A stretch of 39,488 bases of DNA. Origin: Malikia granosa. Lineage in GTDB: Bacteria > Pseudomonadota > Gammaproteobacteria > Burkholderiales > Burkholderiaceae_C. The stretch is from the NCBI RefSeq assembly GCF_002980595.1, contig NZ_PVLQ01000019.1, positions 1 to 39,488 on the forward strand. Direction: 5' to 3'. Both the position numbers and the translations under genes were made by a program. The notes under the pieces are model-generated. The model did no database searches, was not told the origin of the DNA, and saw only the letters and a program-made list of their open reading frames with translations. This document shows, one piece after another, positions 2,968 through 39,488 of this stretch (positions are counted from its first letter, which is position 1; every line of letters begins with the position of its first letter).

Positions 2968-4242
2968 ATGAAATCGATCGCAGTCATCGGCGGTGGCATC
3001 ACCGGCGTCACCACGGCCTACGCGCTGGCCAAGCGCGGCTACTCCGTCACCCTGCTCGAGAAGCACCGCTACGCGGCGATGGAGACCTCGTTCGCCAACG
3101 GCGGCCAGCTCTCGGCCTCGAATGCCGAGGTCTGGACCCATCCCTCCACCCTCGTCAAGGGGCTGAAGTGGATGCTCAAGAGCGATGCGCCGCTGCTGGT
3201 CAATCCCAAGCCGAGCTGGCACAAGCTGAGCTGGTTCGCCGAGTTCATCGCCAACATCCCGAACTACCGGCAGAACACGATCGAGACCGCCCGCCTGGCC
3301 GTGGCCGCGCGCGAGCACCTGTTCGCCTGGGCCGAGGCCGAGGGCGTGCACTTCGACCTCAAGAAGAAAGGCATCCTGCATATCTACCGCGACAAGGCCG
3401 GCTTCGACCATGCGGGCGAGGTCTCCAAGCTGCTGGCCGCTGGCGGCCTGCTACGCCGTGCCGTCACCCCGACCGAGATGCGCGCGATCGAGCCGACCCT
3501 GGCCGGCAACTACTACGGCGGCTACTACACCGAGAGCGACTCGACCGGCGACATCCACCTGTTCACCAATGGCCTGGCTGCCGCGGCCGAGCGGCTCGGC
3601 GTCACGCTGCTGTTCGGCCAGGAGGTGCGCTCGCTGCGCAGCGATGGCCAGACGGCCGTGGTCAGCGTGGCCGACGAGACCGGCGTGCAGGAGCGCCGCT
3701 TCGACGGCCTGGTGGTCTGCGCCGGCGTTGCCAGCCGCGAGCTGGCGGCCCAGCTCGGCGACCGCGTCAACATCTACCCGGTCAAGGGCTATTCGATCAC
3801 CGTCAACCTGCTCGACGAGCAGAGCCGGCGCGCCGCGCCCACCGTCAGCCTGCTCGACGACGAGACCAAGCTCGTGACCAGCCGGCTCGGGCCGGACCGC
3901 TTCCGCGTCGCCGGCACGGCCGAGTTCAACGGCTACAACAAGGACATCCGCGCCGACCGCATCCAGCCGCTGGTCGACTGGGTCAAGCAGTGCTTCCCGG
4001 GCGTCAGCACGCGCCAGGTGCTGCCCTGGGCCGGCCTGCGCCCGATGCTGCCGAGCATGTTGCCGCGCGTCGGCCGCGGTCGCCAGGCCAATGTGTTCTA
4101 CAACACCGGCCATGGCCATCTGGGCTGGACGCTGTCGGCGGTCACCGCCGATATGATCGCCGACGTCGTGGCGCAGGCCGACGAGCAGGCGATCCAGGTC
4201 GGCGCTGCCCCGGGCAACCAGCTGTTCCCGCTGCGCGCCTGA
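2968..4242 (+). CDS. dadA: D-amino acid dehydrogenase (FAD-dependent)
   Basis: This membrane-associated flavoenzyme oxidatively deaminates D-amino acids to 2-oxo acids. The ATG at 2968 is chosen because GGAG lies at 2954-2957 and the dinucleotide-binding motif KSIAVIGGGITGVTTAYALA follows at once. The open frame extends upstream to 2878, but that part is riboswitch. The 424 residues fit DadA, with FANGGQLSASNAEVW after the FAD motif and a C-terminal GHGHLGWTLSAVTADMIAD segment typical of the DAO superfamily. Its position behind a glycine riboswitch, with an alanine/glycine symporter downstream, leaves open that glycine or a glycine derivative is a relevant substrate. Confidence 0.9.
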   Translation: MKSIAVIGGGITGVTTAYALAKRGYSVTLLEKHRYAAMETSFANGGQLSASNAEVWTHPSTLVKGLKWMLKSDAPLLVNPKPSWHKLSWFAEFIANIPNYRQNTIETARLAVAAREHLFAWAEAEGVHFDLKKKGILHIYRDKAGFDHAGEVSKLLAAGGLLRRAVTPTEMRAIEPTLAGNYYGGYYTESDSTGDIHLFTNGLAAAAERLGVTLLFGQEVRSLRSDGQTAVVSVADETGVQERRFDGLVVCAGVASRELAAQLGDRVNIYPVKGYSITVNLLDEQSRRAAPTVSLLDDETKLVTSRLGPDRFRVAGTAEFNGYNKDIRADRIQPLVDWVKQCFPGVSTRQVLPWAGLRPMLPSMLPRVGRGRQANVFYNTGHGHLGWTLSAVTADMIADVVAQADEQAIQVGAAPGNQLFPLRA

Positions 4243-16903: not shown

Positions 16904-18400
16904 TCAGGGCTTCCTGACCACCGCGTAGCGCGCCAGCGTCTGCTCGCGCGCCCGGGCGTGGTCGACGATCGGGCGCGGATAGTCCCGGCCCAGTACCAGG
17001 CCGGCGGCCTCGAGCTCGATCGCGCCCGCCAGCCAGGGCGCGTGCAGCGCGGCGTCGGGCAGCTGGGCCAGTTCGGGTACATAGCGCCGGATGAACTTCC
17101 CCTGCGGGTCGAACTTCTCGCTCTGGCTGACCGGGTTGAAGATGCGGAAATAAGGTTGGGCGTCGCAGCCGCTCGAGCTGGCCCATTGCCAGCCGCCGTT
17201 GTTGGCGGCCAGGTCGAAGTCGATCAGCCGCTCGGCGAAATAGGCCTCGCCGCGCTTCCAGTCGATCCCGAGGTCCTTGCACAGGAAGCTGGCCGTCACC
17301 ATGCGCAGCCGGTTGTGCATGTAGCCGGTCTGGTTCAGCTGGCGCATCGCGGCATCGACCAGCGGATAGCCGGTGCGGCCCTCGCACCAGGCCTGGAACT
17401 GCAGCTCGGCCGACTTGCCATGCTCCCACTGGATCGCGTCGTATTCGGGCTTGAACGACGCATTCACCACCTGCGGGAAATTGGCCAGGATCTGCAGGTA
17501 GAAGTCGCGCCAGATCAGCTCGGACAGCCAGGTGCTGGCACCGACCAGACCCTGCAGGTGCATCTGGTGCGCGACGCCGGCGAGCTGGCGGATGCTGATG
17601 GTGCCGAAGCGCAGGTGCACGCTCAGGTAGCTCGGGCCCTTGACGGCCGGGAAGTCGCGCGCCTGCTGGTAGCGCTCGATGCGGGTCAGGAAATCCTCGA
17701 ACAGGCCCTGGGCGCCGCGGCTGCCGGTGCGGATCTTGAGCGCGCGCAGATTGGTCGGCTCGAAGCCGATCTCGGCCAGCGTCGGCACGCCGGCCGGATG
17801 CGCGGCGGGGCAGGGCGCCAGCGCGCCGGCATGGCGCTCGACCGCATAGGGCTTGAGGTAGAAGGGGGTGATCTTCTTCAGCCAGGCGTTCTTGTAGGGC
17901 GTGAAGACGCCATAGGGCCGGCCGTTCTGCGTCACGAGCTCGTGGCGCTCGAAGATCGCGTGGTCCTTGTGCAGGTGCAGCATGATGCCAGCGTGCGCCA
18001 GCCTGCCGAGCACCTGCTGGTCGCGCTGGCGCGCGGCGGGCTCGTCGTCGTGGTTGGCATAGACCGCCTGCACGCCGAGCTGTTCTGCCAGCCGCGGGAT
18101 CTCGTCGGCCGCAGGGCCGTGGCGCACGATCAGCCCGACCCCCTCGACGCCGTTGGCGCGTCCGAGACCGCGCAGCTGTTCGTCGAGGTCGAGCAGCGAC
18201 TCGTGGATGAACTCGACCCGCCGGTCGGCCTTCAGGCCACGATCCAGCAGCGGCTGCAGGATGTCGGTGTCGAAGACGAAGGCGCACCAGACCCGTTTGC
18301 AGTCCTTCAGCGCGTGGTAGAGCGCGGCCTGGTCGCTCGCGCGCAGGTCGCGCCGGAACCAAATCAGTCCGCTGTCATATTTCTTGGGAATCAGGGTCAT
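16904..18400 (-). CDS. phrB: Deoxyribodipyrimidine photolyase
   Basis: This light-driven DNA repair flavoprotein of 498 residues fits class I photolyases. The N-terminal antenna domain begins [18 protein letters not shown]. The FAD domain contains [41 protein letters not shown]-type sequence, [20 protein letters not shown], and [20 protein letters not shown]. The start at 18400 ([15 protein letters not shown]) is preferred because longer frames overlap the divergent yqgE gene start at 18426. CPD rather than 6-4 or cryptochrome function is the default inference from the NNGGWQW motif. Confidence 0.94.
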
Positions 18401-28000: not shown

Positions 28001-30304
28001 TCAGCCCTTGTCGGCGCTGCAGACGACGGCGACCGCCGTCATGTTGAGCACGCGGCGCATGGTCGCCGAAGGCGTCAGGATATGCGCGCTGGCGGCCGAT
28101 CCCATCAGGATCGGGCCGACGGTCACGCCACCGCTGGTCGTGGTCTTGAGGACGTTGAACAGGATGTTGGCGGCGTCGAGGTTCGGGCAGACCAGGATGT
28201 TGGCCGAGCCGGTCAGGGCCGAATCCGGCAGGTAGCTGCGGCGGATGTCCTCTTCCAGTGCGGCGTCGCCATGCAGTTCGCCGTCGCATTCGATCTCGGG
28301 ATGGGCGGCGGCGAACAGCTCGCGCGCCAGCCGCATCTTGCGCGCCGACGGGCGGTTCGACGAGCCGTAGCTCGAGTGCGACAGGAAGGCGACCTTGGGC
28401 GGAATGCCGAAGCGCTGCACTTCCTTGACCGACAGCCAGGCGATCTCGGCCAGTTCCTCGGCGCTCGGGTTGTCGTTGACGTAGGTGTCGGTGATGAACA
28501 GCGGGCCGTTGTCGGTGTTCAGCGCGTTGAGCGCGGCGAAATGGCTGGCGCCCGCCTTGCGGCCGATGATGCTCTCGATGCGCTCGAGGTGGGTCTCGTA
28601 CTGGCCGACCAGGCCGCAGATCATCGCGTCGGCGTCGCCGAGCCTGACCATCAGCGCGGCGATGATGGTGTTGGAGCGGCGCACCGCAGCCTTGGCCATC
28701 TCGGGCGTGACGCCGTCACGGCCCATCAGCTTGTGGTAGGTCTCCCAGTACTGGCGGAAGCGCGCATCGTTCTCGGGGTTGACGACCTCGAAGTCGACGC
28801 CCGCGCGGATGCGCAGGCCGGCCTTGGCGATGCGAGCCTCGATCACGGCCGGGCGGCCGATCAGGATCGGCAGCGCGAGCTGGTCGTCGATCGCGGCCTG
28901 GGCCGCGCGCAGCGCGCGCTCGTCCTCGCCGTCGGCGTAGGCGACGCGCTTCTTGTCGGCGGCGATGGACTTGGCGGCGTTGAAGACCGGACGCATCAGG
29001 ATGCCGGTCTGGTAGATGAAGCGGCCCAGGCTCTCCTTGTAGGCCGCCATGTCCTGGATCGGGCGGGTGGCGACGCCGGAATCAGCGGCGGCCTGCGCGA
29101 CCGCGGGCGCGATCTTGAGGATCAGGCGCGAGTCGAAGGGCTTGGGGATCAGGTAGTCGGGGCCGAACACCAGGTCCTGGCCGGCGTAGGCGGCGGCGAC
29201 CTCGTCGCTGATCTCGCTCTTGGCCAGGTCGGCGATCTGGCGCACGCAGGCCAGCTTCATTTCCTCGGTGATCTTGGTCGCGCCGCAGTCGAGCGCGCCG
29301 CGGAAGATGTAGGGGAAGCACAGGACGTTGTTGACCTGGTTCGGGTAGTCCGAGCGGCCGGTGGCGATGATGCAGTCCGGGCGCGCGGCCTTGGCGATCT
29401 CGGGGCGGATCTCGGGCTCGGGGTTGGCCAGCGCCAGGATGACCGGCTTGTCGGCCATCGACTTGACCATCTCGGCGTTGACCACGCCGGCGGCCGAGCA
29501 GCCCATGAAGACATCGCAGCCGACCATCGCGTCGGCCAGCGTGCGCTTGTCGGTGTCGCGGCAGAAGCGCTGCTTGGAGGCATCGAGCTTGCCGGCCAGG
29601 GCATCGGCGCGCTGGCTGTGGATCACGCCCTTGGAGTCGCAGACCAGGATGTTCTCGACCTTGACGCCGAGACCGATCATGACGTCGAGGCAGGCGATCG
29701 CGGCGGCGCCGGCGCCCGAGACGGCCATCTTGATCGAACCGATGTCCTTGCCGACGAGCTCGAGCGCGTTGAGCAGCGCTGCGCTCGAGATGATAGCGGT
29801 GCCGTGCTGGTCATCGTGGAACACCGGGATGTTCATGCGCTCCTTGAGCTTCTTCTCGATGTAGAAGCACTCGGGCGCCTTGATGTCTTCCAGGTTGATG
29901 CCGCCCAGCGTGGGCTCCATCGAGGCGATGATCTCGACCAGCTTGTCGGGGTCGTTCTCGGCCAGCTCGATGTCGAACACGTCGATGCCGGCAAACTTCT
30001 TGAACAGGCAACCCTTGCCTTCCATCACCGGCTTGGAGGCCAGCGGGCCGATGTCGCCCAGGCCCAGCACGGCGGTGCCGTTGGTGATCACGGCGACCAG
30101 GTTGCCGCGGCTGGTGTAGTCGGCGGCCAGGCTCGGGTCCTGCTCGATCGCCAGGCAGGGGTAGGCAACCCCGGGCGAGTAAGCCAGCGACAGATCGCGC
30201 TGGTTGGACAGCGGCTTGGTCGGGTTGACGGTGATCTTGCCCTTGCTGGGCGAGCGGTGATAGTCCAGTGCAGCGTCGCGCAACGCTTGTTCTGCGGGGG
30301 TCAT
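28001..30304 (-). CDS. maeB: NADP-dependent malic enzyme with phosphotransacetylase-like domain
   Basis: MaeB decarboxylates malate to pyruvate with NADP. The 767-residue chain has the malic enzyme domain ([56 protein letters not shown], and a Rossmann motif [16 protein letters not shown]) over residues 1-430. A C-terminal phosphate acetyltransferase-like domain ([17 protein letters not shown] onward) follows; it is regulatory in this class and binds acetyl-CoA. AAGGAG precedes the ATG. It is divergent from the copper gene pair. Confidence 0.96.
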
Positions 30305-33386: not shown

Positions 33387-34427
33387 TCAGGCAGCGATGC
33401 CGCCGCGCACGATACCGGTTCGGCGCAGGATGCAGGCTCCCATGTCGGCAGTGACTTGGACCAGCGTGCCGTCTACCTCAGCAGGGGTCTTGCGCTGCTC
33501 GACGCGGATAGGATGCCGGGTGCCATAGAGGCGCAGCAGTGCCACGACAGGGCAGGCCACGGGGTCAGCCAGCAGATACCAGCGATGGGCCGGCAGATCG
33601 GCCAAAACGCTGACGCGCAGGTCAAGGCCAGCATCGCGGATCAGTCGGCGCGCCTCGAATTCCAGCTCGGGCGATGTGACGATGTGGGTCGCGCTCAAGC
33701 CGGATCGTTGTCCAGTGGCGGTCGGCTGGGTGCGCAGCGCAGCCATGCCGGAGCCCAGCGCAGCACCAGACAGGGGTTGCTCAATGACGTTGACATGCTC
33801 GGGGCCAAAGATCGGCAGGCCGTCAGACAGCGGCGGCGGGTTTTCCAGGGCGGCCGTCACGAGGCGCGATTCGATCCGGCCGGCACTGACGCCAACGGCC
33901 GTGAAGCTCTGGGCAATGGCGGACGCCTGATCGTTGACGATGGCCTGCCGCGATACCAGCACCGCCTTAGCATAGGTAGTCAGGCGAACGGACTGATTAA
34001 CCGATGCCATAAACGCGAATCCGCGAGTGACGCGCCCGTTTTCTCCCAGCTTTTCCAGCTCCAGGCCGTCATCGTCCAGGGAGACCATTTCAACGGGCTT
34101 GAAGTCGCTTACCTCCATCACAGCGCTGAAGTTCAGGTGATCGGCGGCGTGCGAGTCGTAGGAGGCGCGGGTGATCTTGGTGTAACCGTCTGCCAGCACG
34201 GCGGAGAACTCCGACGAAATCATCCCGCGTCCCATGACGGATATGTCGAGTTCATTCTCGGAAGGAGGTCGAACCCGCGAGCCGGCCGCATAGGCGATCT
34301 GACGCAGGGTCAGACCGTCCGCGAGCGGGTGGGGGTAATCGACATGCTCGCCGATAGCTTGGCGGATCGCGTCAGGCGCTGCCGCCATGACAGCGCCGGG
34401 GGTGAAAGTGGATTTGGTTTCAGTCAT
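33387..34427 (-). CDS. Phage major capsid protein (gpT/protease-fusion type)
   Basis: This 346-residue protein resembles the C-terminal capsid part of ClpP-protease/capsid fusion proteins. Diagnostic stretches are ASYDSHAADHLNFSAVMEVS-DFKPVEMV, LEKLGENGRVTRG, TYAKAVLVSRQAIVNDQASA, and the end block WYLLADPVACPVVALLRL then DGTLVQVTADMGA. Here the capsid domain stands alone, with no protease before it. ATG at 34427 (MTETKSTFTPGAVMA) is the start. Its presence without portal or tail genes in this stretch suggests a satellite that makes or remodels capsids. Family call from pattern recall only. Confidence 0.68.
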   Translation of the reverse strand: MTETKSTFTPGAVMAAAPDAIRQAIGEHVDYPHPLADGLTLRQIAYAAGSRVRPPSENELDISVMGRGMISSEFSAVLADGYTKITRASYDSHAADHLNFSAVMEVSDFKPVEMVSLDDDGLELEKLGENGRVTRGFAFMASVNQSVRLTTYAKAVLVSRQAIVNDQASAIAQSFTAVGVSAGRIESRLVTAALENPPPLSDGLPIFGPEHVNVIEQPLSGAALGSGMAALRTQPTATGQRSGLSATHIVTSPELEFEARRLIRDAGLDLRVSVLADLPAHRWYLLADPVACPVVALLRLYGTRHPIRVEQRKTPAEVDGTLVQVTADMGACILRRTGIVRGGIAA

Positions 34428-34436
34428 GCCTATATG

Positions 34437-34451
34437 GTCAGGCTTCCTGAC
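34437..34451. promoter_or_regulatory. Short perfect hairpin before the capsid gene
   Basis: GTCAGG-CTT-CCTGAC is a perfect 6-bp stem with a three-base loop, ten bases upstream of the capsid ATG (minus strand) where a ribosome site would be expected. No good Shine-Dalgarno sequence is visible, so the hairpin may be a translational control site or a coat-protein binding element. It is short enough to be chance. Confidence 0.3.
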
Positions 34452-34477
34452 TGAAATGATCCGGCTATCGCTTCGGC

Positions 34478-34864
34478 CTACTTCACCAGGTCGAACAGGC
34501 GCCTGGCGGTGGCGGGGACGCGCTCGCCGGCCAGGAAGGCCCGGTGCAGGGCGCTGTCGAGCGGGTCCATGCTGCCGGCCATGCCTCCAGCACGCAAGCG
34601 CGGCCAAATGCGCGTTTGGAATCGCTTCACGGCCTGGGCCAGTCTGCCGGCCACGGTCCAGGCGCCGGCATCATCAGCGGCCAGCAGGCGCGACGCCTCG
34701 ACCAGGGCGGCGTCACGGTACCTGATCCGGGCCAGGCGATCGACCCCGAGCGCCTGGGTATGGTTGGCCGCCTCGGCTGCGGCCGTCAGCAGGCGGCGCG
34801 CTTCGTCAGGGGTCACGCGGTCGCCGTTGGCGACGCGCATCAGCAGCTCGATGCCGGATTGCAT
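34478..34864 (-). CDS. Hypothetical protein between terminase and capsid genes
   Basis: This 128-residue, all-helical-looking protein starts MQSGIELLMRVANGDRVTPD and ends VPATARRLFDLVK. GAGG six bases before the ATG at 34864, one base after the upstream stop, decides the start. It is not recognised. Its position between a small terminase and the capsid gene is where satellites and phages carry scaffolding, decoration or connector genes, but no motif supports a choice. Confidence 0.65.
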   Translation of the reverse strand: MQSGIELLMRVANGDRVTPDEARRLLTAAAEAANHTQALGVDRLARIRYRDAALVEASRLLAADDAGAWTVAGRLAQAVKRFQTRIWPRLRAGGMAGSMDPLDSALHRAFLAGERVPATARRLFDLVK

Positions 34865-34865
34865 G

Positions 34866-35444
34866 TCAGACCTCATCGCCTGCTCCATCGTCTGCAAGGT
34901 CGGCGTCCTGGTCTTCATGCTGCTCGGACAAGCTGCGGTCGACCAGCTCTGACGTAGATCTGATCCAGGCGGCGCGGGCACTGGCGATGACGGCCAGCAC
35001 CACAGTGCGGGCGGACTCGGGCAGATCCGGCGCGGCCTGCTCGAGCTGGCCGGTCAACTGGTCGATATGGGCAGCCATCGGGGCGCTGACCATGGCCAGC
35101 ACCTCGCGCAGCAGCGCGGTCGGGGCGTACTCGGCGCGCATGGCCTCGTTCTTCATCTCGACCGCCTCGCGCTGGGCGCGCGCCAGGGCGGCGCGCTCCG
35201 CAGGCAGGCTCAGGAGGCCGTCGCCTGTCTGGCGTTCGGCCTCGGCTTCAAGGTGCGCCAGGTAGGCCCGCAGTTGCTCCAGGGCGGTGCCGTCGCGGGG
35301 AATGTGGCCAGCCGTGATGTGGCGGCTGATCGCGGACTGTGTGACGCCTACCAGGTCGGCCAGCTCTTGCTGGGTGCATGGCAGGCCCAGTGCCGGCCAG
35401 CGTTTCAGCAGGCCGATGTCGTGGTCTTGTGTGTCTTGGTTCAT
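34866..35444 (-). CDS. Nu1-like phage terminase small subunit / DNA-packaging protein
   Basis: This 192-residue protein has an N-terminal helix-turn-helix (PCTQQELADLVGVTQSAISR followed by HITAGHIPRD, about residues 22-50). A long helical region comes next, in the style LSLPAERAALARAQREAVEM-KNEAMRAEYAPTALLREVL, typical of Nu1-type small terminases that recognise packaging sites. An acidic tail (EQHEDQDADLADDGAGDEV) closes it. AAGGGGG precedes the ATG. A satellite small terminase would redirect a helper phage's large subunit to the element's DNA. No large terminase is seen. Confidence 0.65.
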   Translation of the reverse strand: MNQDTQDHDIGLLKRWPALGLPCTQQELADLVGVTQSAISRHITAGHIPRDGTALEQLRAYLAHLEAEAERQTGDGLLSLPAERAALARAQREAVEMKNEAMRAEYAPTALLREVLAMVSAPMAAHIDQLTGQLEQAAPDLPESARTVVLAVIASARAAWIRSTSELVDRSLSEQHEDQDADLADDGAGDEV

Positions 35445-35557: not shown

Positions 35558-35608
35558 GGTGTTCACCTGCTCCTGGTCGTGGATCAGGCAAGGCCACTAC
35601 CCCCCATC

Positions 35609-35633
35609 GACACGTAGACAAACTCGACAAACC
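35609..35633 (+). repeat. 25-bp iterated repeat, copy A
   Basis: The unit is GACACGTA-GACAAACTC-GACAAACC: three successive GACA(A/C)A-type subunits. It differs by one base from the inverted copy B at 35682-35706 and by two from copy C at 39189-39213. It lies 3' of the YfjI gene next to an AT-rich patch. Confidence 0.85.
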
Positions 35634-35681
35634 CAAATGATGGATGGCATGACGGGTTTGTCGTGCAAGGGTCTGATCTCT

Positions 35682-35706
35682 GGTTTGTCGAGTTTGTCTA
35701 TGTGTC
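35682..35706 (-). repeat. 25-bp iterated repeat, copy B (inverted)
   Basis: Read on the minus strand it is GACACATA-GACAAACTC-GACAAACC, one base different from copy A and one from copy C. A and B form a large inverted repeat with 48 bp between them; a partial GGGTTTGTCGTG unit at 35654-35665 lies inside. Confidence 0.85.
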
Positions 35707-35723
35707 TAGCAGCGGTAGTAGCC

Positions 35724-35780
35724 TTGAGGTACAAGATATTGATAAATAAGTAAAAATTACTTAGAAATCATCTTTAGCGA
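35724..35780. other. AT-rich patch beside repeats, candidate unwinding region
   Basis: This stretch is strikingly AT-rich for the window and includes AAGTAA-AAA-TTACTT (35748-35762), a perfect inverted repeat. A degenerate repeat copy (20 of 25 matches to copy C) follows at 35779-35803 across the YfjI stop codon, and another interrupted copy lies at 35873-35893. Iterons plus an AT-rich segment are the usual make-up of a replication origin. Confidence 0.5.
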
Positions 35781-35788
35781 CAGATCGA

Positions 35789-37435
35789 CTAACTCGACAG
35801 AAGTGGGTTGATTTGAACCATGGCAGTTGGTTTTGCCCTGTTGTTGCGCTTGCTGTAGGTCATCACGCATCCGGTTTGTCTGAGTTTGTCGATGGCAGCG
35901 GTCAGTTTGTCGAGGTTCTTGAAGCGCCAGGACAAGCCCCTCTGAATGTCCCGCTGGCTGGCTTCTTCCAGTCCGCGCCCGGTCAGCCAGCGCAGCACCA
36001 GCGCCGCGTCGTCGTCCACCGGATCGGCCCCCAGCAGCCCGAAGGCCGCCTGGGCGTGCGGGATCAGCAGCCGTGCCAGATGGATTGCCCGCGCCATGGC
36101 GGACTCGCTGACCCACTCGGCTGTCAGACCCCACTCGGCCAGCTCGAGCAGCGCCGCGATGCGGGCCACGGTGCCGGGCAGCTTGCTGGTCCAGTCGCTG
36201 ATTCCCTCCAGGTCGCCGCCCGCGCCTTGCAGATGCTCGACCTCCTGGGCAAAGTCAAACCACAGCTCACGCGCCGTATCGGTCAGTTCCAGGACGGTTG
36301 CCGGGCCGGGTGCGCCGGGCTCGCCCGGCAGTCCGTGCAGCAGGCCCTCGATGCCGGCCTGGTAGTCCTCGCGCACTTCGTCGGGGATGTCGTGCATCTC
36401 GCGCACATCGCGCCGTCCGACGTTGCTTTCGGGCATGGCGTAGAGGAAGCGGGCCAGCAGGCCGGACCCCCTGAAGCCGTTGCCCTTGGCCACGTCGGCC
36501 ATGATGGCCGGCTGAATCATCAGGTTGAAGGACAGCGCCGGCCGGTCGGCGTAGGCTTTGCGACCCGCCCGGTCCACGCGCATGGGGCTGCCGGCATGGC
36601 CTTGCAGGAACACGTCGAGGTTGGCCGACCCGCCCGAGTAGCGTCCGCCCATGATGCCGAAGATGCCCGGCTCGTCGCTGTGAACCGCCATGCTCTCGCC
36701 GTGCTCCATCAGCATGACTTGCAGCCGCTCGGGTGTCACATCGGCGGTGAACAGCCTGGGCGCGCGCAGCTCGTCGGGCAGCTCGTCCTGAAGCTGCTCG
36801 ATCTCGCGCCGCAGTTCTTCCAGCTCGGCCGGGTCTGCCTTGCCACAGCGCAGCGTCAGTGCCTCGATCCGCTTCTGGATCGTGTTGCGCAGCGTCAGGT
36901 TCTTGGCAATGTCGCGCCGCATCCGGTCGGCCAGCAGCTTCTCCCAGCGCACCAGCGGCCCCAGGAAGGCCCCGAGCACCGCCGTCTTGCGCGTGCCGGG
37001 TGGGCTCACGCTGACGCACCACAGGGACAGGGTTTCTCGAAAGCTCTTGCCGCCCTTGGGCGCGACCTCGAAGCGGCGTTGCAGCACGGTCGCCAGCACC
37101 CCCAGCGCGCACAGCACCGACATGACCCCAGGTGTCTGGGTGGACTTGGCGACATGGTGGGCGTAGTCGCCCAGCCAGCCGGCCAGCACCTCATAGACCG
37201 GGATATCGGGCGTCTTGGCGCTGCCGGGAAGTATGGGTTCAGTCCATTCGTGAGCCGGTGCAGCGGCCGTCATCGTGCCGCCGAGCCCGTCCTGGTTGTC
37301 GTCGACCTCGGGCAGATCCGGGAAGGTCCGCTCAGGCGGCCGTGGCTCTGTTTGCACAGCGGCCTTGATGACCTCTGCCACGGCCTCGAGGCCGCACTCG
37401 CTGGCTAGGTCGTTGAAGTCGGTCAGCTCAGACAT
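35789..37435 (-). CDS. YfjI/DUF3987-family ATPase, replication helicase-like
   Basis: This 548-residue protein has a degenerate P-loop, VSVSPPGTRKTAVLGAFLGP (about 141-160), typical of the DUF3987/YfjI family, which sits downstream of Toprim primases in satellites and islands. A charged coiled-coil-like region (RKRIEALTLRCGKADPAELE onward) and VHSDEPGIFGIMGGRYSGG follow. The first residues, MSELTDFNDLASECGLEAVA, are the usual C-terminal motif of a Toprim primase, so the N-terminus belongs to the preceding domain. It overlaps that gene by 13 bases behind a G6 run. Confidence 0.82.
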   Translation of the reverse strand: MSELTDFNDLASECGLEAVAEVIKAAVQTEPRPPERTFPDLPEVDDNQDGLGGTMTAAAPAHEWTEPILPGSAKTPDIPVYEVLAGWLGDYAHHVAKSTQTPGVMSVLCALGVLATVLQRRFEVAPKGGKSFRETLSLWCVSVSPPGTRKTAVLGAFLGPLVRWEKLLADRMRRDIAKNLTLRNTIQKRIEALTLRCGKADPAELEELRREIEQLQDELPDELRAPRLFTADVTPERLQVMLMEHGESMAVHSDEPGIFGIMGGRYSGGSANLDVFLQGHAGSPMRVDRAGRKAYADRPALSFNLMIQPAIMADVAKGNGFRGSGLLARFLYAMPESNVGRRDVREMHDIPDEVREDYQAGIEGLLHGLPGEPGAPGPATVLELTDTARELWFDFAQEVEHLQGAGGDLEGISDWTSKLPGTVARIAALLELAEWGLTAEWVSESAMARAIHLARLLIPHAQAAFGLLGADPVDDDAALVLRWLTGRGLEEASQRDIQRGLSWRFKNLDKLTAAIDKLRQTGCVMTYSKRNNRAKPTAMVQINPLLSS

Positions 37436-38268
37436 GGGCCACCCCCCTCGAACACCGGGACCGCCACCACGCCATGCACCGCCCGCGCCGCAGCGCGTGC
37501 CGCCGTCAGGCCGGGGTTGCCCTGGGTCTGGCGGTCATCGTCGGCGCACAGCACCAGCCGCAACTCGGGGAACTTGGCGCGCAGCGCGCGTGCCACGGGC
37601 TCCATGTTGTTGGCACTGAAGCAGGCCGCCACCGGCAAGCCAGAGGCTTGATGCAGCGTTGCCGCGGTCGCGTAGCCCTCGGCGATCAGCAGCGCCTCGC
37701 GCGGCCTGCCGATGGCCACATAACAGCCCTGGGTCATGCCGCCAGTCAGGAACTTCTTGCCGCCGTCCGGGTAGATGAATTGCAGGCTGTGCAGCGTGCC
37801 CGACGTGTCGCGCAGCGGGATCAGCAGGGCGTCGCCCAGCGACCGCAGGCCGTAGGCGTTGACCTGCTTGCGCATCAGGTAGGGGTGGGCATTGGTGGCC
37901 GGCTTGGCCCGCCCCCACAGTTTTGCCGCCTTGTCGCGGGCCTGGGCGCGGACCTTGGCCAGTTCCTCGCGCCGGGCCTTTTCCAACAGATCCATGCGGA
38001 TCTTGAGGTCGGCCTGCTCTTGCGCCGTGGGCGCTCGGGTGCGATCGAAGCCACTGCGCCAGGTATGGGTCGCGCCAGTCTTCCAACTGCCGAAGGAACC
38101 GAAGGATGCCGTGCCCATCTCGTGCAACACGGCCCAGCCGTTGACGCTGCCGCCCTTGTCGCCCTCGACCCGGTAGCGGATCAGCTTGCCCGTGCCGGGG
38201 ATGTGCAGATCCTTGGCCGGGCGCAGTCCAGCCGCCGCCATGGCGTCTTGAATCGTGCCGTCGCTCAT
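37423..38268 (-). CDS. Toprim-domain primase, C-terminal motif displaced into next frame
   Basis: This 281-residue protein begins MSDGTIQDAMAAAGLRPAKD. Its Toprim domain includes PREALLIAEGYATAATLHQA, with the catalytic Glu, and LRLVLCADDDRQ, with the acidic metal-binding cluster. After AVPVFEGGGPCLS it stops, while the expected closing motif TDFNDLA is encoded at once in the overlapping gene. Inserting one G in the G6 run (plus-strand C6 at 37442-37447) would fuse the two frames into about 830 residues. The 121-residue gene's stop overlaps its ATG (ATGA). Confidence 0.8.
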   Translation of the reverse strand: MSDGTIQDAMAAAGLRPAKDLHIPGTGKLIRYRVEGDKGGSVNGWAVLHEMGTASFGSFGSWKTGATHTWRSGFDRTRAPTAQEQADLKIRMDLLEKARREELAKVRAQARDKAAKLWGRAKPATNAHPYLMRKQVNAYGLRSLGDALLIPLRDTSGTLHSLQFIYPDGGKKFLTGGMTQGCYVAIGRPREALLIAEGYATAATLHQASGLPVAACFSANNMEPVARALRAKFPELRLVLCADDDRQTQGNPGLTAARAAARAVHGVVAVPVFEGGGPCLS

Positions 38269-38630
38269 GCTGCCGCCCCTTCGGCCGCAGCATGGTAGTA
38301 GTGAAAGAGCGGTGGCATCATCCATTTTTCAGCGTCGCCGTACACGGCGCTACCAGCTCCTTCGATTCGGTCAGAGGCCATGTCAGCCGCCCAGCCGATG
38401 CGTTGCGCCATCGCCTCGATGGCTGTCAGGTAGGTTTCTTCGTCTTCCTGCCCGTGCCCCAGGTTGACCATCAGCAGCGAGGTTAGGCGGTTGATGTGCT
38501 TGGCCATTCCGGCAATGTCGTTGAGCAGAATTCCGAGCTGCTCGGGCGTCATGCTCGCTGCGGCCTTGTTCTTCCAGTCGCTTGAGCGGCGCTTGGGGAT
38601 AACGCTCTCAGAGGTCTTTGCGGTGCTCAT
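38265..38630 (-). CDS. Hypothetical protein of the primase operon
   Basis: This 121-residue protein has a basic N-terminus (IPKRRSSDWKNKAAASMTPE) and a helical body with LGHGQEDEETYLTAIEAMAQ and GWAADMASDR. It has some resemblance to small phage DUF3077-type proteins, but not enough to assign. Both ends overlap neighbours by four bases (ATGA), placing it firmly in the operon that leads to the primase. Function unknown. Confidence 0.68.
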   Translation of the reverse strand: MSTAKTSESVIPKRRSSDWKNKAAASMTPEQLGILLNDIAGMAKHINRLTSLLMVNLGHGQEDEETYLTAIEAMAQRIGWAADMASDRIEGAGSAVYGDAEKWMMPPLFHYYHAAAEGAAA

Positions 38631-38902
38631 GCTCCACCCCCTGCCACCTGGGCAGCGCAGGCACGCTTGAGCAAGGTGGTGGCACGGGCGGCGCGGCCCG
38701 TGGCCTGTTGCAGCTTGGCCGGATCGCAGTCGAGCGAGCGCAGCAGGTGCAGGGCGCTGGCCAGGGCGTTTTCGGCCGCAGCGTGCAGGGCAATGATCTG
38801 GGGGTCGGTGATGTCCGCTTGGGACTGGATGGGCGCAGCGCGGTGGCTGGCCAGGGTGATGATGGGCGCAGCAGCGCGCACCAGGGGGACGACCTTGGTC
38901 AT
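38627..38902 (-). CDS. Hypothetical small protein; first gene after immunity-RNA region
   Basis: With ATG at 38902 (GGAG 7 bases upstream) it has 91 residues starting MTKVVPLVRAAAPIITLASH and is rich in alanine and helical, with AAENALASALHLLRSLDCDP and GRAARATTLLKRACAAQ. The frame is open far upstream: an ATG at 39073 would give 148 residues, adding MSDFVRCWSSSIGMVTGEMG and PCYEHLVHPLRVVAWG. The position matches P4 kil/ash-type genes behind the CI RNA, but no sequence identity is claimed. It overlaps the next gene by ATGA. Confidence 0.6.
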   Translation of the reverse strand: MTKVVPLVRAAAPIITLASHRAAPIQSQADITDPQIIALHAAAENALASALHLLRSLDCDPAKLQQATGRAARATTLLKRACAAQVAGGGA

Positions 38903-38972
38903 GGTTGGGGCTCCGGAACGAGACTCAGAAGCCACTCCCCACGCTACGACACGCAGGGGGTGGACGAGATGT

Positions 38973-38981
38973 TCGTAACAC
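38973..38981 (-). promoter_or_regulatory. Candidate antisense target in the operon leader
   Basis: The minus-strand message reads GTGTTACGA here, the exact complement of TCGTAACAC in the loop and 3' stem of the small RNA at 39128-39120. A second short match, GTGGGG near 38940, could pair with CCCCAC of the RNA's 3' hairpin. P4 CI and P1 C4 RNAs act by just such pairing with the leader downstream, promoting early termination or blocking translation. Confidence 0.45.
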
Positions 38982-39073
38982 GGGTTCCGCCGTGCGGCCG
39001 TCCTCGCGGATAGGCCCATCTCGCCCGTAACCATGCCGATGCTGGAAGACCAGCAACGGACGAAATCGGACAT

Positions 39074-39149
39074 GACAAAACCCCGCTTTAAGGTGGGGGC
39101 TGCAACCTCGGAACCAAAGGTGTTACGACACACCGGGCCTTTCGGCTTG
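39074..39149 (-). ncRNA. Candidate P4 CI / P1 C4-like antisense immunity RNA
   Basis: An RNA starting near 39149 would be about 75 nt. It shows a closing helix CTGCAA/TTGCAG (39152-39147 with 39105-39100), a hairpin GCC-GAAA-GGC (39146-39137), a second hairpin GGTGT-GTCGTA-ACACC (39134-39119), and an end hairpin CCCCAC..GCGGGG (39098-39081) followed by TTTT. If the start is within the first helix, CTGCAA is partly lost. C4 and CI RNAs are 70-80 nt multi-stem antisense RNAs at the head of the operon they repress, as here. Confidence 0.55.
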
Positions 39150-39154
39150 CAGAA

Positions 39155-39163
39155 ATCATAGCA
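39155..39163 (-). promoter_or_regulatory. Extended -10 promoter for the small RNA/operon
   Basis: On the minus strand TGCTATGAT is an extended -10 element (TGnTATGAT, one change from TATAAT). No good -35 hexamer is present, as is usual for extended -10 promoters. Transcription would start about 39148. Repeat copy C lies some 26-50 bp further upstream and could overlap regulation. Confidence 0.5.
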
Positions 39164-39188
39164 GGGTTTACTGTCACCTGTCCCTATA

Positions 39189-39213
39189 GACACATCGACA
39201 AACTCGACAAACC
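39189..39213 (+). repeat. 25-bp iterated repeat, copy C
   Basis: GACACATC-GACAAACTC-GACAAACC, one base different from copy B and two from copy A, about 3.5 kb away. It lies just upstream of the small-RNA promoter, the place where P4 has ori1 relative to its CI RNA. Confidence 0.85.
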
Positions 39214-39239: not shown

Positions 39240-39449
39240 TACAGACTCGCGGCCTGGCCGGTCCTGTCCGGCCAGCGCTTGCGATCGCGGGCCTTGCGGC
39301 GCTCGTTGCGGCGCGGGGGCTTGTTGCCCGAGCAGGTGGTCGTCGGGTTCAGCTTGCGGCCGGTGTGCGGATCTGCGACAATGGCGCTGTTCTGGGCGCT
39401 CGTCGTGACTTCGGTTGCGGCGGGCGTTTTTTCTTGGGTTCTCAACCAC
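39240..39449 (-). CDS. Coding-like region at contig end, partial
   Basis: In the minus frame the codons for TSAQNSAIVADPHTGRKLNP and CSGNKPPRRNERRKARDRKR have third positions almost entirely G or C, the signature of real coding sequence here, and the frame is open to the right edge. The product is very basic (Arg/Lys-rich) and unrecognised. The frame continues without stop through copy C and the small RNA to 38627, so where this protein ends is unclear. A TTG at 39445 is the earliest possible start visible. Confidence 0.4.
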
Positions 39450-39488
39450 CCCCCCCCCCCCCGGCCACCCCGCCGGCGCCCGGCCCCC
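39450..39488. other. Poly-C and GC-only contig end
   Basis: A run of about 17 C followed by a GC-dominated tail with no coding or structural sense. It is most likely an assembly or read artefact at a contig end, so the last 40 bases should not be interpreted. Confidence 0.75.

What the first reader, a model, noticed from the sequence alone, without database searches (positions are those of the whole stretch)
35609..39213. 25-bp repeats flank the primase-ATPase operon as in P4 ori and crr
Three near-identical copies (one or two mismatches) occur: one upstream of the immunity RNA at 39189 and an inverted pair just past the YfjI stop at 35609 and 35682. Degenerate copies lie at 35779 and 35873, and an AT-rich patch lies between. 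Each copy is three GACA-type subunits. In P4 the replication protein binds repeats in ori1 and crr at the same relative places.
Basis: partly seen in the sequence, partly recalled or inferred. Interest (0 to 1): 0.78.

Follow-up and report, generated by a model that had tools for sequence, protein, structure and literature searches.

The report
Satellite replication origin with swappable specificity
The repeats look like the start site for DNA copying in a small parasite of bacterial viruses, sitting just after the gene of the protein that probably reads them; that protein's reading head and the repeats change together between relatives, as a lock and key would.

Summary
The repeats are real and far above chance. 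The inverted pair just past the yfjI (DUF3987) stop codon is a conserved structure, best read as a replication origin: AT-rich stretch plus inverted arrays of 9-bp iterons. It recurs past yfjI in relatives from small integrase-bearing satellite-like elements (9.5-13 kb where both ends are seen), with a different 9-mer in many. Over 21 loci iteron sequence tracks the predicted C-terminal winged helix of YfjI (residues 485-546; partial r 0.52, p 0.0002-0.0005), not adjacent residues 420-484. A second satellite in the same genome has a 96% identical yfjI core, but DBD codons (72%) and arrays (64%) differ as one block. Past more distant DUF3987 genes across the phylum 9 bp is the best repeat period in about 29 of 56 loci (controls under 1 and 2.2 of 26; in-gene 2.3 of 29 and 2.0 of 27). 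The layout matches published Gram-negative PICI origins better than the P4 ori1/crr pair: the upstream copy at 39187-39213 was clear in 1 of 10 satellites (this one) and abuts the -35 of a predicted promoter. The primase is P4-alpha-like; YfjI is not. Binding and replication were not tested.

The parts
35602..35633 (+). iteron array A, outer arm of the inverted pair (3 units, GACA starts 8 and 9 bp apart)
   Evidence: same place in relatives
35682..35708 (-). iteron array B, inner arm of the inverted pair, next to the AT-rich stretch
35709..35771 (.). AT-rich stretch between the yfjI stop and array B (candidate melting site); many relatives carry TATCAATGACTTA or similar here
   Evidence: A+T 0.65 in the first 80 nt after the stop, window 0.32; sequences
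35772..35803 (+). degenerate iterons spanning the yfjI stop codon, on the far side of the AT-rich stretch; weak on their own
35792..35983 (-). codons 485-548 of yfjI: predicted winged-helix domain, proposed iteron reader; helix 508-520 resembles a recognition helix
   Evidence: AlphaFold2 models; Foldseek winged-helix matches; covariation
35789..37435 (-). yfjI, DUF3987 protein (548 aa), proposed replication initiator/ATPase
   Evidence: Pfam PF13148 E 6.7e-98; PHROG 2373 'DNA helicase'
37423..38325 (-). Toprim-domain DNA primase, related to the primase part of P4 alpha
   Evidence: Pfam Toprim_3, PHROG 2249 'DNA primase'
39187..39213 (+). iteron array C upstream of the operon; clear in this element only among 10 tested
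39155..39184 (-). promoter-like site GGGACA-18-TATGAT with extended -10; its -35 hexamer ends 2 bp from array C
   Evidence: consensus match only
39077..39168 (-). possible C4-like RNA, sub-threshold
   Evidence: 20.5 bits, gathering 41, E 1.8
34866..35444 (-). TerS/Nu1-like HTH protein; HTH core identical in the sister element although the iterons differ
33387..34607 (-). major capsid protein gene of the satellite
   Evidence: Pfam PF25209, PHROG 4523

Best explanation
The sequence from the yfjI stop codon to about 35602 is the replication origin of a phage-satellite-like element. YfjI (DUF3987) is the initiator: its C-terminal winged helix binds 9-bp iterons beside an AT-rich stretch, its ATPase domain helps open and unwind it, and the P4-type Toprim primase encoded just upstream primes synthesis. 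The DBD codons and the iterons are adjacent, so one recombination tract can exchange both and give a new matched specificity; the two satellites of this genome differ in just this way. The upstream copy (39187-39213) is probably an element-specific extra site by which YfjI tunes its own operon promoter, or an accessory replication site. Shown here: repeats, conservation, covariation, predicted fold, block difference. Inferred: binding, melting, replication, autoregulation, recombination as the cause of the block.
For: In 13 of 13 loci scanned with an arm copied from one of their own arrays, a further opposite-strand copy above the null maximum (20 simulations) lies past yfjI; 9 of 9 further satellite-type loci show arrays there by eye, with a clear inverted copy in 8 (not L214; L205 duplicates L042). 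A DNA-only pattern scan (95 stretches) returned L026, L042 and L099, which carry yfjI relatives beside the repeats. Covariation, 21 loci: r(ori, DBD)=0.64, partial given core 0.52, p 0.0002 and 0.0005; core given DBD 0.01, p 0.47; residues 420-484 -0.04, p 0.60. Window against sister L115: yfjI codons 76-470 1137 of 1185 bases identical, DBD codons 138 of 192, stop through arrays 121 of 188 (15 gap columns), then 133 of 157, terS 424 of 479. DUF3987 genes in general: period 9 best in 14.4 of 29 and 14.7 of 27 loci; at least 14 of 18 at period 9 in 20 of 56, against 0 of 52 regions before the frame and 1 of 56 in-gene regions. Inverted copy in 16 of 27 loci with clear period 9 and 4 of 29 others. 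The CFT073 island taken to be EcCICFT073, whose rep and ori were both needed for plasmid maintenance (PMC6092414), shows by eye 9-bp-spaced units round an AT-rich region past rep.
Against: No binding or replication data. DBD and iterons are neighbours, so plain linkage could give some covariation; the 80 nt after the stop also correlate with the DBD (0.36, p 0.001), though the sharp edge at residue 485 speaks for recognition. A first, hand-curated test on 13 loci gave no significant partial correlation (0.24, p 0.15), and the 21-locus test was set up after it. Residues 340-400 give a weak 0.16, p 0.07. About half of the DUF3987 loci and E. coli K-12 yfjI (p 0.35) show no clear period 9. One close pair, L132/L207 (DBD 85%), shares no repeated 6-mer. 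The ATPase part of the model has low confidence and the whole model pTM is 0.52. YfjI residues 1-75 also diverge from the sister copy (163 of 216). The stop-codon iterons of the window are weak.
Confidence: 0.82

Rival explanations
1. P4-type two-site replicon: upstream array C is the origin (ori1) and the inverted pair past yfjI is a cis-required crr.
For: Same relative positions as in P4; arrays A, B and C have nearly the same sequence; P4 type 1 repeats are 8-mers mostly 9-11 bp apart within a group; the primase is P4-alpha-like.
Against: Clear upstream array in 1 of 10 satellite loci; AT-rich stretch and several arrays sit at the downstream site; the sister element has none upstream (11 of 18, null maximum 12); YfjI is not like alpha.
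Confidence: 0.1
2. The repeats are operators or packaging sites: a repressor or the TerS/HTH protein binds them.
For: Array C abuts a predicted promoter; an HTH TerS-like gene follows the inverted pair.
Against: TerS residues 22-50, the HTH core, are identical in window and L115 although the iterons differ; iterons follow DUF3987 genes phylum-wide; covariation maps to the YfjI DBD. Array C may still serve as an operator for YfjI itself.
Confidence: 0.06
3. The inverted pair is a transcription terminator or RNA hairpin at the end of the operon.
For: Strong predicted RNA hairpins (window -74.3 kcal/mol, z -9.5; L115 z -4.0; L131 z -5.6).
Against: Arms are made of direct 9-bp units; L099, L130 and L132 have three arrays; 11 of 27 DUF3987 loci with clear period 9 lack a clear inverted copy; the simple scan finds no terminator-like site at the inverted pair (it allows loops of 3-8 only).
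Confidence: 0.04

Closest known systems
PICI origins, e.g. EcCICFT073 pri-rep-ori (Fillol-Salom 2018, PMC6092414; section 6 and passages read)
   Same: Origin immediately 3' of the initiator gene; iteron sets flanking an AT-rich region; 9-bp spacing of units by eye in CFT073; satellite with a capsid gene.
   Different: Initiator there is D5_N/DUF5906/Pox_D5; here DUF3987 with a separate Toprim primase.
Satellite phage P4 ori1/crr with alpha protein
   Same: Short repeats, direct and inverted, at both ends of the replication operon; related Toprim primase.
   Different: P4 alpha carries D5_N/DUF5906/Pox_D5, no likeness to YfjI; upstream site not shared by the present family; repeat sequence differs.
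V. cholerae PLE replicons (PMC8263062, passages read)
   Same: Initiator DNA-binding domain and iteron origin exchanged together between satellites; the paper argues that a phage nuclease (Odn) with RepA specificity drives it.
   Different: RepA_N domain and about 30-bp semi-palindromic iterons; here a DUF3987 protein with a C-terminal winged helix and 9-bp iterons.
PICMI satellites (PMC10803314, passages read)
   Same: The search model's primase is defined by PF13148 (DUF3987) and DUF5906; deleting prim lowers the number of element copies.
   Different: The word iteron does not occur in that main text.

Membership tests
PICI-type replication origin | origin immediately 3' of the initiator gene | tested here: met
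   arrays begin within about 100 nt of the yfjI stop
PICI-type replication origin | iteron sets on both sides of an AT-rich region | tested here: inconclusive
   AT-rich stretch and strong arrays B, A on one side; the set on the stop-codon side is weak in the window (20 of 28, null maximum 19)
PICI-type replication origin | autonomous replication needs rep and ori | not testable with these tools
   needs a plasmid test
Gram-negative PICI / phage satellite | small integrase-bearing element at specific att sites, without a full phage gene set | tested here: met
   met in relatives: exact end repeats of 46 bp (L116, 9.6 kb), 38 bp (L117, 9.5 kb), 19 bp (sister element, 13.1 kb with an IS); integrases; TerS-like and capsid genes but no portal, large terminase or tail among the ORFs searched, which were not all ORFs. 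In the window the integrase end is off the contig
Gram-negative PICI / phage satellite | alpA regulator | tested here: inconclusive
   int-alpA RNA above gathering score in L115 (49.1 bits), but the candidate protein had no Pfam match
Gram-negative PICI / phage satellite | induction and packaging by a helper phage | not testable with these tools
   -
P4 ori1/crr replicon | repeats both past the initiator gene and upstream of the immunity region | tested here: met
   met in the window; not conserved, clear upstream array in 1 of 10 loci
P4 ori1/crr replicon | Toprim primase of the alpha type | tested here: met
   43% identity over 127 aa, E 1e-18
P4 ori1/crr replicon | helicase and origin-binding part of alpha (D5_N/DUF5906/Pox_D5) | tested here: not met
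   YfjI is DUF3987; no significant BLASTP match to alpha (best E 0.26); alpha domains

The most novel reading that the evidence does not exclude
DUF3987, a family of unknown function, is a phylum-wide class of satellite and phage replication initiators whose C-terminal winged helix reads 9-bp iterons of hypervariable sequence and constant spacing just 3' of its gene; DBD and origin travel as one swappable cassette, plausibly under selection from competing elements or phage counter-measures.
Probability: 0.6. Interest if true: 0.75.

Novelty: new variant of a known kind. Interest (0 to 1): 0.62.

Why it matters
It turns a domain of unknown function into a testable initiator family with a predicted DNA-reading domain and predicted target sites in many genomes, gives a natural set of matched protein/site pairs for decoding winged-helix specificity, and points to a second satellite lineage, besides PLE, in which the initiator DNA-binding domain and the origin change together.

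Tried and rejected
A tblastn of YfjI against named phages gave only distant hits (65 records, all under 60% identity, 40 listed), and a first single-protein viral scan found no relative. Of the 95 stretches with the exact 17-mer in genome contigs, tblastn found a yfjI relative in 4 (L026, L042, L099 at 53-55%; L020 at 25%, its 17-mer copies not beside yfjI); L092 has the arrays of L042 but no yfjI in the held stretch; most others look like chance matches. The hand-aligned iteron Mantel test on 13 loci was inconclusive and was followed by an automatic 6-mer measure on 21 of 27 loci. Dropped before that test: L203 (frame not resolved), L200-L202 and L204 (about 32-34% identical), L205 (same origin as L042). 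Co-resident elements must differ in iterons: rejected as a rule, since G613 and G1204 each hold two DUF3987 genes with 89% identical C-termini and nearly the same iterons. A coding-sequence iteron copy (35884) that seemed to covary with the outer iterons in L115 did not hold by eye in other relatives. No solved structure matches the YfjI profile at E up to 1.

Full report
OBSERVATION. With up to 3 mismatches the 15-mer core occurs 11 times against 0.44 expected, and the exact 13-mer occurs nowhere else in the held 3.83-Mb draft genome. The unit is a 9-mer, three per array with GACA starts 8 and 9 bp apart; arrays A (35602-35633) and B (35682-35708) are inverted, array C (39187-39213) lies upstream. 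Between the yfjI stop and array B lies an AT-rich stretch (first 80 nt 65% A+T; window 32%). Units over the stop codon itself are weak: 20 of 28 against a null maximum of 19, with an equal hit at 18195.

CONTEXT. The operon encodes a Toprim primase and a DUF3987 protein. The primase matches the primase part of P4 alpha (43% over 127 aa); YfjI does not match alpha, whose other domains are D5_N, DUF5906 and Pox_D5. TerS-like and capsid genes follow, and a malic enzyme gene at 28001-30304 shows chromosomal sequence to the left. The window is a whole contig that ends inside the element, so its integrase end is missing. L116 and L117 lie between exact 46- and 38-bp repeats, about 9.6 and 9.5 kb, and the sister element between 19-bp repeats, 13.1 kb, with integrase and capsid genes. 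The five closest viral contigs but one (L130-L133, L198) are 9.0-14.1 kb long, L199 7.0 kb. The family is uncommon: 10 of 399 genomes sampled from the host family, its own included. This is a phage-satellite-like element, close to Gram-negative PICIs in gene content.

CONSERVATION. Each of 13 loci was scanned with an arm copied from one of its own arrays; in 13 of 13 an opposite-strand copy above the null maximum of 20 simulations lies past yfjI, all within about 320 bp of the stop. Other hits at or above the null maximum: array C and 18195 in the window, 9120 in L115, a partial array at 3915 in L117 (23 of 30), and single borderline hits in L026, L125 and L126. Nine further satellite-type loci show arrays there by eye, eight with a clear inverted copy. 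The 9-mer differs: TCGACAAAC in the window, TACACAAAC in L115, GACAATA types in L116, TCGAAAAAG in L125, GACAAAAGC in L126, GACAAAAAT in L132, CGTGAAAAA in L213, CTGGAAAAA in L214. The plan is constant while the letters change.

WHO READS THEM. The C-terminal part of YfjI is predicted as a winged helix (residues 472-548, block pLDDT 75-88; domain alone mean 75.9), and its nearest solved folds are winged-helix regulators, the best a repressor bound to its operator (E 9e-4, the only match below 0.001). On 21 loci, similarity of repeated 6-mers in the origin correlates with identity of residues 485-546 (r 0.64; partial given core 0.52, p 0.0002), while core given DBD is 0.01. A segment scan puts the signal in 485-503 (0.55), 504-520 (0.24, p 0.026) and 521-546 (0.40); 420-484 gives -0.04 and 340-400 a weak 0.16, p 0.07. 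Linkage remains a partial alternative, as the 80 nt after the stop also follow the DBD (0.36, p 0.001). An earlier hand-curated test on 13 loci was not significant after correction for the core.

BLOCK DIFFERENCE. The same genome holds a second satellite (L115). DNA identity is 0.939 in toprim, 0.755 in yfjI codons 1-75, 0.959 in codons 76-470, 0.952 in 471-484, then 0.719 in codons 485-548 and 0.644 from the stop through the arrays, then 0.847 up to terS and 0.885 in terS. The TerS HTH core is identical and the primase 93%, so neither explains the iteron change. In the predicted recognition helix Asp516 is His in L115. Other genomes with two DUF3987 genes: G613 and G1204 have 89% identical C-termini and nearly the same iterons; G731 and G1023 have different iterons, but their proteins are only 27% and 41% identical in the core, so they add little; G1073 could not be compared.

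GENERALITY. PF13148 was found in 32 of 369 genomes of the class sample and 48 of 398 of the phylum sample; of the matches, the 29 and 27 best-scoring fetched loci (own genome and repeats removed, some of them gene fragments) were tested. Among periods 5-30, 9 bp was best in 14.4 and 14.7 (ties shared) in -45..+255 around the stop; before the open frame under 1 of 26 and 2.2 of 26, inside the gene 2.3 of 29 and 2.0 of 27. E. coli K-12 yfjI shows none. Inverted copies accompany 16 of 27 loci with clear period 9 and 4 of 29 others.

COMPARISON. Fillol-Salom 2018 (section 6 and passages read) states that PICI origins lie immediately 3' of the initiator gene, with two iteron sets flanking an AT-rich region, and tested one in EcCICFT073. 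The CFT073 island that I take to be this element (capsid and head decoration genes together) shows by eye 9-bp-spaced units there, beside an initiator of another family. P4 has repeats at both ends of its operon, as here, but the upstream site is not shared by relatives (1 of 10 clear). PLE replicons show joint exchange of initiator domain and origin (passages). In the held library no paper contains DUF3987 together with iterons, or with 'replication initiat'; papers outside it were not searched.

VERDICT. A real, conserved, iteron-type origin of a satellite-like element, read most probably by the YfjI winged helix; a known kind of origin with a new initiator family and an unusually clear specificity cassette. 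Binding and replication are untested.

Noticed in passing
L115 16603-17637: An IS30-like transposase (rve, HTH_38) lies inside the sister satellite, after the gene that follows terS.
   Followed up: no
L131 3798-3883; L115 8812-8890: A true C4 antisense RNA (67.4 bits) and an int-alpA RNA (49.1 bits) in relatives: P4/PICI-style RNA control in this family.
   Followed up: partly
L117 3915-3944: A third, partial iteron array (23 of 30) lies at the far end of the element, near the end repeat at 3752.
   Followed up: no
window 35884-35892 and 35905-35913 (-): Two exact iteron 9-mers fall inside the codons of the predicted recognition region of yfjI.
   Followed up: partly
L117 7536-9086: yfjI of G131 carries one in-frame stop codon; described only.
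   Followed up: no
L117 4470-6617; L131 9687-11396: Capsid gene is fused to a protease domain, ClpP-like in L117 and weakly S78-like (below cut-off) in L131, suggesting exchange of the protease part.
   Followed up: no
window 37423-38325 (-): The primase is P4-alpha-like while the helicase/origin-binding part is DUF3987: the two halves of the replication module look interchangeable between satellite lineages.
   Followed up: partly
window 39448-39488: The contig ends in a C-rich low-complexity run, possibly an assembly artefact; sequence beyond 39.45 kb should be used with care.
   Followed up: no
L200-L204 (viral contigs): Distant DUF3987 relatives (32-34% identity) carry TTTGTCC/AAGGACAGA-type 9-mers at or just past the stop codon in four of the five by eye; the frame of L203 was not resolved.
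   Followed up: partly
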